The translations under genes and the position numbers were made by a program. Under the pieces are notes generated by a model. It saw nothing but the letters and a program-made list of their open reading frames with translations, was not told the DNA's origin and searched no databases. Positions 12,606-17,824 of a DNA stretch of 17,824 bases are shown here, one piece after another. Each line of letters starts with the position of its first letter. The stretch's first letter is position 1. Source of the DNA: Acidobacteriota bacterium (GTDB lineage Bacteria > Acidobacteriota > Vicinamibacteria > Vicinamibacterales > UBA2999); the NCBI GenBank assembly GCA_013813075.1, contig JACCSI010000322.1:1-17824 (forward strand), written 5' to 3'.

Positions 12606-12956
12606 ATGTCCAGCGACGCGGTCGAAACTTTTCCCAATCCTCGTCCCGAGCGCGACTTCGAAATCGCCATCGACTGCCCGGAGTTCACCTCGATGTGTCC
12701 CAAGACCGGGCTGCCGGACTTCGGCACAATACGGATTCGCTACGTGCCCGATGCGCAGTGCCTCGAATTGAAAGCGCTCAAGTATTACCTGCTGACCTAT
12801 CGGAACCAGGGGATGTTTTACGAGGCGGTCACGAACAAGATTCTGGACGATCTCGTCGCCGCATGCCGCCCGCGGCGGATGACGGTGGTGGGCGATTTCA
12901 CGGCGCGCGGCGGCATTACGACCAGGGTGACGGCAGACTTCGTCGATGGACGATGA
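12606..12956 (+). CDS. queF: NADPH-dependent 7-cyano-7-deazaguanine reductase (preQ0 reductase)
   Basis: Reduces preQ0 to preQ1 in queuosine tRNA-modification synthesis, using NADPH. A 116-aa single-domain (type I, B. subtilis-like) enzyme of the T-fold. The catalytic motif [16 protein letters not shown] holds the nucleophile Cys31 and Asp38; the QueF/substrate motif follows in [20 protein letters not shown], and DFTARGGIT near 97-105 matches the family C-terminus. It is shorter than the B. subtilis enzyme, with trimmed ends but an intact core. No other queuosine genes (queC, queD, queE, tgt) are in the window. The ATG appears leaderless. Its end overlaps the Smr gene by 11 bases. Confidence 0.95.
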
Positions 12957-13236
12957 CGTGTTTCGCGTGGCGCTCGAGGACACGTTCGACCTCCACGCCT
13001 TTGCCGCGGCTGAAGTCGTGGCCGTCGCTGAAGAGTACCTCCACGCCGCACACGACGCCGGGTTGACCGTCGTGCGGCTCATCCACGGTCGCGGCAAAGG
13101 CGTTCAGCGGGCCGCCGTCCACCGCATGTTGCGCGACCACCCGGCAGTAGAGGGCTATGTCGACGCGCCTGAGTCGCACCTCGGCGCGACGGTCGTTCGG
13201 GTCAAGAGGCGACCGCCGCGAGATTCGACCCAATGA
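12946..13236 (+). CDS. Small Smr-domain protein (possible nuclease)
   Basis: A 96-aa protein consisting of one Smr domain, as found at the C-terminus of MutS2. Seen: DLHAF (15-19, the LDLHG motif), a helix ending [12 protein letters not shown], the signature IHGRGKG (46-52) followed by [10 protein letters not shown], and a final strand HLGATVVRV. Smr domains nick or cleave nucleic acids; in ribosome-rescue proteins they cut mRNA. Here no MutS-type or other domain is attached. ATG 12946 lies inside the last codons of queF (11-base overlap), so the two are likely translationally coupled. Its 3' end overlaps the convergent TadZ/CpaE-like gene by 35 bases. Confidence 0.88.
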
Positions 13237-14205: not shown

Positions 14206-14406
14206 ATGACGTCCCACGAAAAGAGAATCGATTTTGTCCGCCCCCCTGTCGACGAGTGGGGCATCTATGATCCCGAGCAGGCGGGTTTGGCTGCGGTCCT
14301 CGAACGGCTCGAGGTGCGCCGCCGCGCGGTCGGGGTGTCGCTGGCCGACGCGCTCGGAATGGCCGGGTCGATGCGGGATACCCGTCGCCTCGCGCACCAG
14401 GACTAG
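14206..14406 (+). CDS. Hypothetical 66-aa soluble protein
   Basis: A small acidic-to-neutral protein beginning MTSHEKRIDFVRPPVDEWGI. The first half has a patterned, aromatic- and proline-containing stretch (FVRPPVDEWGIYDPEQAG), and the second half is a likely helix (LAAVLERLEVRRRA) followed by a shorter one. No family is recognised. Support: ATG 14206 has a Shine-Dalgarno GGAG with 5-base spacing, and residues before this ATG in the same frame (open back to 13945) lack protein character. It lies between the divergent TadZ/CpaE-like gene and the helicase, 148 bases upstream of the latter. Neighbourhood gives no firm role. Confidence 0.6.
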   Translation: MTSHEKRIDFVRPPVDEWGIYDPEQAGLAAVLERLEVRRRAVGVSLADALGMAGSMRDTRRLAHQD

Positions 14407-14554: not shown

Positions 14555-16828
14555 GTGCAGGAAATAGGATCCCCCTTTCGCGCCGGACAACACGTCGTCA
14601 TTCGTGACGAGCCGTGGCGCGTCGTCGAAACCGAAGTCTTCGAATTCGTCACGGTGTTGACGATCCGTGGCATCGGCAACGACAACCGCGGGGACACGAT
14701 GCGGGTCCTGACGCCGTTCGACACCGCCACCACGCTGGCGCCCGCCACCCGCATCATCCAACGATCACGCCGAGCCGTGCTCGCAGCCGCAGCGTTCGCC
14801 ATTGCCGACGCGCCACCCTGGGACCAGTGCTGGACCGCCGCGTCCGCGACCATCGATATCCTCGGCTGGCAGCTCGAGCCCGCGATCGCCGCAGTGCGCG
14901 GTGACACCCGCATTCTGCTGGCCGACGAAGTGGGGCTTGGCAAGACGATTCAGGCGTCCCTCATCGTCTCAGAGCTGATGGCGCGCGGGCTCGCACAACG
15001 CGTGCTCGTGCTGACACCCGCCGCCCTGCGCGAGCAGTGGGCTGCGGAGATGGCGATGCGGTTTCGGCTGACTCCTGTGGTGCTTGATCAGGCCGCGCTT
15101 GCGGCGCTGAGCACGACGCTTCCCCCGGACATCAACCCGTGGCAAACAGCGCCGCTCATCGTGTCCTCGATTGACCTCGCCAAGCGACCCGAGGTGCGGG
15201 CCGCGCTGGCGTCGGTCCCGATTGATGTTCTCGTCGTGGACGAGGCACACCACCTGACCACGGCCAGCGACCGTGCCGCCGTTGTCGCGGATCTCGCGTC
15301 TCGCTCGACGTGGGTGGTGCTCGCGACGGCGACGCCGCACTCGGGTGATGAGCGCGCCTACCGATTCCTGCTCGGTCTCGGTGACGTTGGCGTCGACACA
15401 CTCGCGACATTCCGGCGCTCGGCGGCCCACGTACGCACGGCACAATCGCGGCGATCGAAGCTCATTGCCGTCCAGCCGACCGCCGCCGAGTCTGCGCTCC
15501 TTGTCGCGACGATGGATTACGCGCGGGCGTTGTGGCGCAGCCGAGACAGCAGCGCGGGAGCTGGACTCGTCGCCGCCATCATCGCGCGACGCGCGGCGTC
15601 GTTGGCGTCGGCCGCCAGAAAGACTTTGCAGCGACGGTTGCAGTTGCTTCGTGAACGTACGGCTCCGGAGGTCCCGATGCCCCTGCCATGGGAAGACGAC
15701 GACGCGGCTGATGCCGATGTGGCTGACGCCGTCCTGCGCGTCCGTGGACTGGCCGACCTCAAAGGTGAGATCGCGAAGCTCACGCACCTGGTCGCGTTGG
15801 CTGCCTCCGCGGAGTCCAGATCGTCAAAGGTGGCAGCCATCCGACGGCTGCTGCAACGGTCTCGCGAACAGCTCATCGTGTTCAGCGAGTACCGCGATGT
15901 CGTCGAGGTCGTGGCGACGGGGCTGCGCGACATCGCCCCGGTCGTCGTTCTTCATGGCGGACTCCCCCCATGCGAACGACGAGAAGCGATCCAGGCATTC
16001 ACCGCGGGCCTGGTGCGCACATTGGTGACGACCGATGCCGCAGGCGAAGGTTTGAACCTCCACCAGCGCTGCCGGTGGGTTGTGAACCTGGAGCTGCCAT
16101 GGAATCCACGACGCCTTGAGCAACGAATCGGTCGGGTCGACCGACTGGGACAAACGCGCCGCGTGCACGCCGTGCATCTCGTGCATCGCGGATCCTTTGA
16201 AGCCCGGGTCATCGCCCGACTGACTCAGCGCGCCGCAACGGCGCAACTGCCGTTCGCAGCCCCCCTTCAGGAAGACAAGCCATTGGCTGCCCGGAATCGA
16301 CGGCTTAGGGCGTTCGCCGCAAGTCTCAACAGTTCCGCATCGCCAGCCGTCTATAGCGCGCGGCGACGTGTCACTCAGCGCCACCTTCACCTGGTCTTCA
16401 GCGCTTCGCTGGTAGACGGGTCGGGGCGCCTGGTCCGACGACACCTGAGTGCCCTCCGGGCGCACTCGTCGCTGCCAGTGATCACACGTGCTGCCCTCCG
16501 GGCGGTAACCACCAGGGCGGATGTGCGTGCGCTGCTCGCTGAGGACGTGCAACGCGCCGTGGCAGCGGCGCATTCGTCTTGCGCGCAGACTGCCGCCGCC
16601 ATCGAGCGACGCTGTCACGCCATCGCTGTGGCACTGGCGGCGCGCCGTCAGCGAGCCAGATTCCAAGCCTCGTTGTTCGATCGACGGGCGGAACAACAGG
16701 CCGACGCAGACCACGCCGCGCTCGCGCAGTTACAGTCGCACGCGCAGAAGCGGGCGATTGAGGCGCAAGCGCTGCGTTGCGTCACGGCGGGGATGCCGCA
16801 CCTGATTGCCGCCTGGCTAGGCGACTAG
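14555..16828 (+). CDS. SNF2/RapA-like superfamily 2 helicase (DrmD-like, defence-associated)
   Basis: A 757-aa SF2 ATPase. An N-terminal small domain (GQHVVIRDEPWRVVETE, about 11-60) precedes the helicase core, as in RapA- and DrmD-type proteins. Motif I LLADEVGLGKTIQ (121-133), the Ia strand VLVLTPAALREQW, motif II VVDEAHHL (228-235), motif III LATATPHSG (257-264). The second RecA domain begins near IVFSEYRD (about 442); motif V is TTDAAGEGLNLHQ (about 491-503) and motif VI QRIGRVDRLGQ (about 523-533). The Ala/Arg-rich C-terminal 200 residues are helical and unassigned. It would move along double-stranded DNA using ATP. The gene following in the same frame is a large methylase-type protein; that pairing occurs in class 1 DISARM (drmD-drmMI) and some BREX loci. 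GTG 14555 has a strong Shine-Dalgarno. Confidence 0.92.
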   Translation: MQEIGSPFRAGQHVVIRDEPWRVVETEVFEFVTVLTIRGIGNDNRGDTMRVLTPFDTATTLAPATRIIQRSRRAVLAAAAFAIADAPPWDQCWTAASATIDILGWQLEPAIAAVRGDTRILLADEVGLGKTIQASLIVSELMARGLAQRVLVLTPAALREQWAAEMAMRFRLTPVVLDQAALAALSTTLPPDINPWQTAPLIVSSIDLAKRPEVRAALASVPIDVLVVDEAHHLTTASDRAAVVADLASRSTWVVLATATPHSGDERAYRFLLGLGDVGVDTLATFRRSAAHVRTAQSRRSKLIAVQPTAAESALLVATMDYARALWRSRDSSAGAGLVAAIIARRAASLASAARKTLQRRLQLLRERTAPEVPMPLPWEDDDAADADVADAVLRVRGLADLKGEIAKLTHLVALAASAESRSSKVAAIRRLLQRSREQLIVFSEYRDVVEVVATGLRDIAPVVVLHGGLPPCERREAIQAFTAGLVRTLVTTDAAGEGLNLHQRCRWVVNLELPWNPRRLEQRIGRVDRLGQTRRVHAVHLVHRGSFEARVIARLTQRAATAQLPFAAPLQEDKPLAARNRRLRAFAASLNSSASPAVYSARRRVTQRHLHLVFSASLVDGSGRLVRRHLSALRAHSSLPVITRAALRAVTTRADVRALLAEDVQRAVAAAHSSCAQTAAAIERRCHAIAVALAARRQRARFQASLFDRRAEQQADADHAALAQLQSHAQKRAIEAQALRCVTAGMPHLIAAWLGD

Positions 16829-16831
16829 CAG

Positions 16832-17824
16832 ATGCTTTCCGGGATTTCCGGCTCACTCATCGCGTCGGCGTTTCTCGAGGACGTCGTGCTGCCCGAGCTC
16901 GCGGCGTCCGCGGGCGACGGATGCGCGCACCGAGTGCGCGAGCTGCAGCGCTGGTGGCGACGCACCGAACGCATGCTCGGCCCGGCCTCGAGCGCGCGTG
17001 CGGTCGTGGACGTCGGCGCCGTGCCGTTGCTGGAAGTTCTGGGTTGCCAGGTGCAACAACTCGAGCCACACGGCGGCGGGTTCATCGGTGCGCTGCAAAC
17101 ACCCGGCGGTGCAGCGGTGGTCCTGCGCACGACGCCTTGGGGGGCCGACGCAGGCGCGGCGTGGCGGGACGCAGTGCGGGCCGGCCGCATGGCGCAGACC
17201 CGGTGGGGGCTCGTCTACACGGGCCCCGCGCTTCGTGTCGTGGATGCGTCGCGCACGTGGTCTCGTCGGGCGCTGGAGTTCGATCTGCGACAGTGCATTG
17301 CCGATGAACGCAGCGGGCCGGCGTTGCTCGCGTTGATTGGACGGATGTCCACTTCCGCCGCTGACGGCTTCTCGGCGCTGGTCGATCGGTCGGATGCGCA
17401 TGGCGTGACCGTTTGCAGGCTGCTTGGCGACGGGGTGCTGGAAGCTCTGGCGGCGCTTCTCGCATCACTCGACGCAAGCGGGCGCCGAGATCCGCCCGAA
17501 CCCGACGGCACGCGCGTGGTCTTTGACCAGGCGGTGACGTTGGTCTACCGATTGTTGTTCCTCCTCTTCGCCGAGGCGCGTTCGCTGGTCCCGATGTGGC
17601 ATCACGTCTACCGAGACGCGTACACCATAGACGCCCTCTGCAAGCGGGCGACGGAGCGGCCGCACTCCCGCGGCTTGTGGCGGGCGTTCCAGGCCGTCTC
17701 TCGGCTGGCCCATGCCGGTTGCCGCGCCGGCGACCTGGTGGTGACACCGTTCAACGGCCGGCTGTTTTCGCCGCGTCACACACCGCTCGCCGAAGTCGCA
17801 CGGGTCCCTGATGCGGTCGTCGCT
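16832..17824 (+). CDS. N-terminal part of a large Eco57I/PglX/DrmMI-type DNA methylase (partial)
   Basis: 331 codons are visible and the frame is open at the window end. The region before the methylase domain is seen, not the catalytic motifs (GxG, NPPY) that would prove the call. Recognition rests on VTLVYRLLFLLFAEARSLVP (about 235-254), a hallmark segment of type IIG, PglX and related proteins, followed by YRDAYTIDALC, LWRAFQAVSRLAHAGC and TPFNGRLFSP, which match the same architecture. The N-terminus (FLEDVVLPEL) and a nuclease-like beta-rich part (about 50-130) are also typical. The product would be an N6-adenine methyltransferase, perhaps with nuclease activity. The start ATG 16832 is one codon after the helicase TAG, in the same frame. 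A weak AGG lies about 10 bases upstream. Confidence 0.8.
   Translation, partial: MLSGISGSLIASAFLEDVVLPELAASAGDGCAHRVRELQRWWRRTERMLGPASSARAVVDVGAVPLLEVLGCQVQQLEPHGGGFIGALQTPGGAAVVLRTTPWGADAGAAWRDAVRAGRMAQTRWGLVYTGPALRVVDASRTWSRRALEFDLRQCIADERSGPALLALIGRMSTSAADGFSALVDRSDAHGVTVCRLLGDGVLEALAALLASLDASGRRDPPEPDGTRVVFDQAVTLVYRLLFLLFAEARSLVPMWHHVYRDAYTIDALCKRATERPHSRGLWRAFQAVSRLAHAGCRAGDLVVTPFNGRLFSPRHTPLAEVARVPDAVVA

What the first reader, a model, noticed from the sequence alone, without database searches (positions are those of the whole stretch)
14555..17824. Left end of a helicase-methylase defence island
A SNF2/RapA-like helicase is followed at once by a large protein with the YRLLFLLFAEAR hallmark of Eco57I/PglX/DrmMI-type methylases. 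The motifs are seen; that helicase-methylase pairs of this sort open class 1 DISARM loci (drmD-drmMI, then drmA, drmB, drmC) is established knowledge; that this is DISARM rather than a BREX variant or an undescribed two-gene system is inference. Upstream genes are ordinary housekeeping types, so the island appears to start near 14.5 kb.
Basis: partly seen in the sequence, partly recalled or inferred. Interest (0 to 1): 0.75.

Follow-up and report, generated by a model that had tools for sequence, protein, structure and literature searches.

The report
Ancient chromosomal helicase-methylase gene pair
The two genes are a DNA-translocating helicase and a DNA adenine methylase that sit side by side, usually at one fixed spot, in the chromosomes of most sampled relatives, and they look like the core of a phage-defence system without the usual partner genes and outside any defence island.

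Summary
Window 14555-16828 encodes a 757-aa SNF2/RapA-like helicase, followed after 3 bases by the first 331 aa of a large Eco57I-type methylase, cut by the contig end. The rest of the methylase, with the SAM and NPPW motifs, lies on contig C688 of the same genome; ketopantoate reductase and an amidohydrolase follow it, not drmABC. The interpretation mostly fails. Both proteins occur in the same 39 of 59 genomes of the order (Vicinamibacterales by protein names), usually near queF. Two genomes without the pair keep methylase 3' remnants at that site. DrmA, DrmB, DrmC or YprA homologues occur in 0 of 57 loci with at least 3 kb downstream. The helicase scores 252 bits against NCBI's DrmD cut-off of 610; a relative's genuine DISARM has a full-length DrmD elsewhere. 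So this is neither DISARM nor an island: it is a largely vertically inherited two-gene locus whose methylase has a dead nuclease domain, sometimes with a GxxExxY nuclease gene as third member. Methylation-guarded defence is my best guess; an epigenetic or housekeeping role is the main rival.

The parts
14555..16828 (+). SNF2/RapA-like helicase (translocase), 757 aa
   Evidence: PADLOC DrmD 229 and BrxHI/II 215 bits; NCBIfam DrmD 252 bits against cut-off 610; model mean pLDDT 85.5, best PDB match RapA
16832..17824 (+). N-terminal 331 aa of an Eco57I-type adenine methylase; degenerate PD-(D/E)XK-like domain plus helical domain; continues on contig C688 (4502-2157, minus strand, 781 aa)
   Evidence: the rest with DPAMGSG and NPPW motifs on C688
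17546..17581 (+).
   Evidence: sequence; conserved columns; helix 224-249
12606..12956 (+). queF (preQ0 reductase), anchor of the conserved site; context, not a component
   Evidence: PF14489 107.7 bits; on the same contig within 15 kb in 32 of 39 pair-bearing genomes
12946..13236 (+). Smr-domain protein, context
   Evidence: PF01713 61 bits
12138..12419 (-). HU-like DNA-binding protein, context (named by my own reading of the translation; used as a marker)

Best explanation
A two-gene operon, inherited mostly with the chromosome in the order Vicinamibacterales, that works as a minimal modification-plus-translocase system. SHOWN by sequence: SNF2 motor motifs intact, N6-adenine methylase core motifs intact, a nuclease-like domain in the methylase without an ExK-like motif, strict co-occurrence of the two genes, a preferred site, and no DrmA/B/C, YprA or PglZ near it in the loci searched. 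INFERRED: the methylase marks host DNA at a specific site; the helicase, which may act with the methylase, engages DNA lacking the mark and translocates on it, blocking its replication or transcription or passing it to a nuclease (the adjacent GxxExxY nuclease where that gene survives, host nucleases elsewhere). In short, phage or plasmid exclusion in the manner of BREX/ARMADA but with a much smaller gene set. Confidence that it is a separate two-gene lineage with mainly vertical inheritance: about 0.9. Confidence in the defence mechanism: about 0.5. The figure given is for both together.
Against: No experiment, and no methylome. The site is a housekeeping neighbourhood and inheritance looks vertical, which is unusual for defence genes. 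In ARMADA all four genes were needed for protection (PMC12458937), so a two-gene version may not restrict. In the closest pair compared, the methylase's presumed target-recognition region does not diverge more than the rest, unlike what is usual in restriction systems (recalled). Seven of 39 genomes do not show queF on the pair's contig: four have it on another contig (G022, G040, G043, G047) and three have no strong queF match, so some relocation may have happened.
Confidence: 0.48

Rival explanations
1. Domesticated epigenetic or housekeeping pair: the methylase sets an m6A mark and the RapA-like translocase remodels protein-DNA or transcription complexes; no restriction of phages.
For: Preferred site beside HU, queF, smr and central-metabolism genes; vertical pattern; ExK-like nuclease motif in 0 of 58; best structural match of the helicase is RapA; a 3' nuclease gene intact in only 6 of 39.
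Against: Dispensable: absent from 20 of 59 genomes, with deletion remnants in two. dN/dS about two to four times that of neighbouring lpd, though QueF exceeds both genes in one pair. Sequence kinship is to defence helicases and methylases.
Confidence: 0.28
2. Remnant of a larger restriction system: an ancestral helicase-methylase-GxxExxY nuclease operon has lost its nuclease in most lineages, and the pair survives as self-protection or is decaying.
For: GxxExxY gene intact 3' of the methylase in 6 genomes (G002, G009, G011, G023, G024, G039), broken in G027 and in the own genome; complete losses of the pair.
Against: Helicase and methylase are full-length with invariant motifs, also in pair-bearing genomes without any PF13366 match (for example G012, G015, G037, G049, G050, G052), and show purifying selection in the pairs tested.
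Confidence: 0.15
3. Left end of a class 1 DISARM locus (drmD-drmMI, then drmA, drmB, drmC).
For: Best PADLOC matches are DrmD and DrmMI; gene order helicase-methylase is the same as in a relative's DISARM.
Against: Helicase 252 bits against NCBI's DrmD cut-off 610, while two true DrmD proteins of relatives score 1055 and 1068 bits over full length in PADLOC; methylase 261 bits (C688 part) and 355 bits (full-length relative) against 1353 for a true DrmMI. DrmA/B/C in 0 of 57 loci. After the methylase on C688 come panE and an amidohydrolase.
Confidence: 0.03
4. A fragment of ARMADA, BREX or an Hma-type system.
For: [quoted passage not shown]
Against: No YprA homologue in 57 loci; PglZ in 4 of 59 genomes and not near the pair; helicase group apart from one DpdE/ARMADA-like and seven HmaA-like helicases of the same order.
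Confidence: 0.04

Closest known systems
ARMADA (ArmA BrxHII-like helicase + ArmB PglX-like methylase + ArmC YprA-like helicase; PMC12458937, passages seen)
   Same: A RapA-type helicase gene directly followed by a PglX-like adenine methylase gene
   Different: No YprA-like helicase near the pair; GajB-like helicase not searched for; helicase about 670-890 aa here by my gene calls; usual chromosomal site instead of mobile elements
DISARM class 1 (drmD-drmMI-drmA-drmB-drmC; DISARM described in PMC9142583, passages seen)
   Same: First two genes of the same broad families in the same order
   Different: No drmA, drmB or drmC; helicase is shorter, matches only part of the DrmD models and fails the DrmD cut-off; methylase scores about a quarter of a true DrmMI
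BREX type 3 (BrxHII + BrxXI) and DUF499-centred BR systems (PMC12839542, passages seen)
   Same: RapA-like helicase plus N6-adenine methylase
   Different: No PglZ near the pair; BrxC and DUF499 ATPases were not searched for
Type IIG/IIL restriction-modification fusions (DrdV, BpuSI, MmeI)
   Same: Methylase with N-terminal nuclease-like domain, helical part and methylase domain
   Different: ExK-like nuclease motif absent in 58 of 58; partnered with a helicase

Membership tests
DISARM class 1 | DrmD helicase (NCBIfam NF038317 over its cut-off of 610 bits) | tested here: not met
   251.7 bits, residues 9-563; two true DrmD proteins of relatives score 1055 and 1068 bits full length in PADLOC
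DISARM class 1 | DrmA, DrmB and DrmC next to the pair | tested here: not met
   0 of 57 loci with at least 3 kb downstream; own C688 flank of 2.1 kb has none; MZB matches in 53 of 59 genomes share a contig with the pair only in the one-contig genomes G037 and G049, about 0.75 and 0.82 Mb away
DISARM class 1 | DrmMI methylase | tested here: inconclusive
   PADLOC DrmMI 261 bits (C688 part) and 355 bits (relative, full length) against 1353 for a true DrmMI; PADLOC gives no cut-off here
ARMADA | YprA-like helicase in the operon | tested here: not met
   0 of 57 loci by tblastn with one ARMADA-like YprA protein; no MZB match near the pair
ARMADA | BrxHII-like helicase plus PglX-like methylase pair | tested here: inconclusive
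   BrxHI/II 215 bits, no cut-off; the pair helicases form their own group; no ArmA/ArmB sequences were at hand
BREX | PglZ | tested here: not met
   none in the own genome (84% complete); matches in 4 of 59 genomes (3 over the cut-off), on other contigs except in one-contig G049, where it is about 5.3 Mb from the pair
BREX | BrxC or DUF499 ATPase | not tested
   no profile search was run
Type IIG restriction-modification | active PD-(D/E)XK residues in the N-terminal domain | tested here: not met
   0 of 58 with an ExK-like motif ([DEQN]xK) in the segment of residues 90-106
Antiphage defence in general | protection against phage or plasmid | not testable with these tools
   needs experiment

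The most novel reading that the evidence does not exclude
This is an order-wide, chromosome-anchored immune or epigenetic system made only of a RapA-type translocase and a nuclease-dead methylase: the bare helicase-methylase module shared by DISARM class 1, ARMADA and type 3 BREX, working without their YprA, PglZ or ATPase partners and inherited vertically since early in the history of the order.
Probability: 0.4. Interest if true: 0.75.

Novelty: new variant of a known kind. Interest (0 to 1): 0.55.

Why it matters
DISARM class 1, ARMADA and type 3 BREX share a RapA-type helicase and a PglX-like methylase whose joint role is hard to isolate, because each comes with several other genes. A lineage in which just these two genes are kept together, mostly at one site, in 12 of 15 sampled families offers a simple system for asking what the module does by itself. 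It also shows that genes labelled 'defence' by profile can be near-core chromosomal genes, a caution for defence-island annotation.

Tried and rejected
DISARM, ARMADA and BREX were each tested by searching for missing partner genes and rejected. A defence island was rejected from the gene content on both sides. Frequent horizontal spread was considered and set back by the distance correlations and by remnants at the empty sites. The small ORF 14206-14406 was considered as a third component; related sequence is also found in three loci of the genus that lacks the pair (L070-L072), near the divergent AAA gene, so I leave it out. The TauE, DUF1634, M14-peptidase, panE and 2-oxoglutarate dehydrogenase genes that flank some loci vary or also occur without the pair.

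Rows dropped: the helicase tree has 37 of the 39 genomes (G038's helicase was miscalled by my gene caller; G056 has only a fragment); of its 19 reference helicases 9 were scored with PADLOC and the others were labelled by me from similarity and place. The methylase conservation table used 33 rows over 900 aa. The Mantel test used 24 loci that hold all four genes. The helicase threshold was set by me at a gap: the pair set ends at E 9e-42, the best match in the other 20 genomes is 3e-24, and at E 0.001 SNF2 proteins in general match 58 of 59. At E 1e-20 the methylase is matched in 41 of 59: the two extra are the remnant in G010 and another system in G036. The 80 GTDB loci overlap with the 59 genomes and are not independent of them. 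One of 64 loci (L166) did not show adjacent genes by my 1.5-kb rule and was not followed up. dN/dS values are rough because synonymous sites are near saturation; one of six pairs (L199-L187) gave 0.58 for both genes (0.46 for panE).
Full report
What is in the window. Two ORFs at the right end match the finding: 14555-16828 (757 aa) and 16832-17824, which runs off the end (331 aa). The window is the whole 17,824-base contig C526 of a genome of 3.36 Mb in 759 contigs, 84% complete. The first protein holds SNF2-related and Helicase_C domains over Pfam's cut-offs. Among PADLOC models its best scores are DrmD 229 bits, BrxHI/BrxHII 215 and HmaA 168. The second protein has no Pfam hit in the part seen and DrmMI 83 bits.

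Where the rest is. A DrmMI profile finds two places in the genome: the window's end and contig C688 (4,502 bases), where the minus strand from its right end encodes 781 aa. In relatives the parts equivalent to the two pieces lie in one gene, mostly some 60 bases (20 aa) apart, and the far side of C688 (ketopantoate reductase, amidohydrolase; names from my own reading of the translations) is the right flank of the same gene in relatives G001, G022, G024 and G033. So C526 and C688 are very probably neighbours with about 60 bases missing; this is inference from synteny. The C688 part carries DPAMGSG and NPPW and Eco57I 86.6 bits.

Distribution. The helicase has a strong match (E 9e-42 or better) in 39 of 59 genomes of the family and order, own included, and the methylase (E 1e-60 or better) in the same 39. 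In 33 of the 39 both alignments lie on one contig, all on the same strand; in the other six the genes are cut by contig ends, and in four of these (G000, G007, G034, G046) the start of the methylase is still seen on the helicase's contig. Twelve of 15 sampled families have the pair. In an even sample of the phylum the methylase is found in 29 of 42 genomes of the order, 0 of 4 elsewhere in the class, and 1 of 350 elsewhere (G112, E 6e-61, barely over the threshold). A scan of GTDB genomes gave 267 loci, of which the best 80 were kept; nearly all of these titles say Acidobacteria, Acidobacteriota or Vicinamibacterales.

Site and inheritance. Upstream of the pair lie an HU-like protein, QueF and an Smr protein. 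QueF is on the pair's contig in 32 of 39 genomes, within 6 kb in 27, on the same strand in 31. QueF itself has a strong match in 54 of 59 genomes (55 at E 0.001), so the anchor exists without the pair. I looked at the QueF site in 18 of the 20 genomes without the pair; the other two had no QueF match. In G010 the last part of the methylase (residues 911-1097 of 1110, 46% identity) sits directly after QueF; in G029 residues 1025-1102 (42%) remain between Smr and panE. I read those as deletion scars of the pair. The other 16 showed no remnant by tblastn at E 1e-6, but some of these sites are cut by contig ends soon after Smr (G017, G020, G036). Pairwise distances of helicase, methylase and QueF+HU agree (r 0.93, 0.87, 0.85; 0 of 9999 permutations; 24 loci). 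I conclude mainly vertical inheritance with repeated loss. That the site is ancestral to the whole order is inference, and G040, among others, has the pair on another contig than queF.

What is not there. DrmA, DrmB, DrmC (taken from a relative's DISARM) and one ARMADA-like YprA protein match in 0 of 57 loci with at least 3 kb downstream. MZB/DUF1998 proteins occur in 53 of 59 genomes; they share a contig with the pair only in the one-contig genomes G037 and G049, about 0.75 and 0.82 Mb away. PglZ matches in 4 of 59 genomes, not in the own genome; only in one-contig G049 is it on the pair's contig, about 5.3 Mb away. Genome G006 is a useful control: it has the pair on C130 and, on C2, a full class 1 DISARM with DrmD (1068 bits), DrmMI (1353 bits), DrmA, DrmB and DrmC.

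Not DrmD. NCBIfam's DrmD model needs 610 bits; the window's helicase gives 252. In a quick tree of 56 helicases the 37 pair helicases are one group with support 100, apart from 4 DrmD, 7 HmaA-like, 4 BrxH-like, one DpdE/ARMADA-like and 3 other rows. The tree warns of long branches among the reference rows, so the order of those groups is unsure.

Third gene. A GxxExxY protein (PF13366, NCBIfam TIGR04256) lies 27 to 126 bases past the methylase alignment, same strand, in 8 of 39 pair-bearing genomes: intact in six, broken in G027 and in the window's own genome. In the own genome that broken piece is the only PF13366 match. Of the 56 PF13366 matches listed, nine belong to these eight genes. In the GTDB set it was seen in 10 of 57 loci. 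Its function is unknown to me; Pfam names the family a PD-(D/E)XK nuclease superfamily.

Selection. In six pairs of relatives dN/dS is 0.24-0.58 for the helicase and 0.20-0.58 for the methylase. In the five pairs that hold them, lpd gives 0.06-0.15, HU 0.03-0.11 and QueF 0.12-0.28; panE gives 0.08-0.46 in six. The genes are kept but change faster than lpd and HU; in one pair (L137-L141) QueF exceeds both. In that pair the windows over the presumed recognition region are 0.68-0.76 identical against 0.63-0.87 elsewhere (last window 0.46), so there is no sign of specificity switching there; in the other five pairs those windows range from 0.35 to 0.75.

Mechanism and standing. The best-supported reading is a minimal modification-plus-translocase system; whether it restricts phages or sets an epigenetic state cannot be told from sequence. 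The ARMADA paper tested a four-gene system in which ArmA and ArmB are of these kinds and all four genes were needed (PMC12458937, passages seen); its census is centred on YprA, so pairs without YprA would not be expected there. I found no paper describing this pair in the searches. I rate it a new variant of a known kind.

Noticed in passing
L065 4466-6943 (G006:C2): Between drmMI and drmA of a class 1 DISARM in relative G006 lies, among other ORFs, an 825-aa ORF whose C-terminal part matches PADLOC's PRTase_III-A models (112 bits).
   Followed up: no
L087 (G036:C114): A helicase best matching DpdE (584 bits), an 1820-aa methylase ORF and a 1709-aa YprA-like ORF on one strand: an ARMADA-like or Dpd-like locus in the same order.
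   Followed up: partly
L062, L063 (and helicases of L099, L100): An 820-845-aa BrxH-like helicase is followed by a 364-374-aa protein in L062 and L063 that matches no PADLOC model.
   Followed up: no
L095 7097-10678 (G055:C40): A full-length HmaA-type helicase (1717 bits, PADLOC) in a relative.
   Followed up: no
window 14206-14406 +: A 66-aa ORF between the AAA gene and the helicase; its central part is conserved in relatives near the AAA gene, also in loci without the pair.
   Followed up: partly
L140, L190 record titles: MAG records titled Cyanobacteria and Acidimicrobiia have the contig lengths of genomes of the window's own family, so the titles are probably wrong.
   Followed up: partly
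G000:C87:1807-2046: The own genome has one MZB/DUF1998 match in a 730-aa open frame on another contig, perhaps a MrfA-like repair helicase.
   Followed up: no
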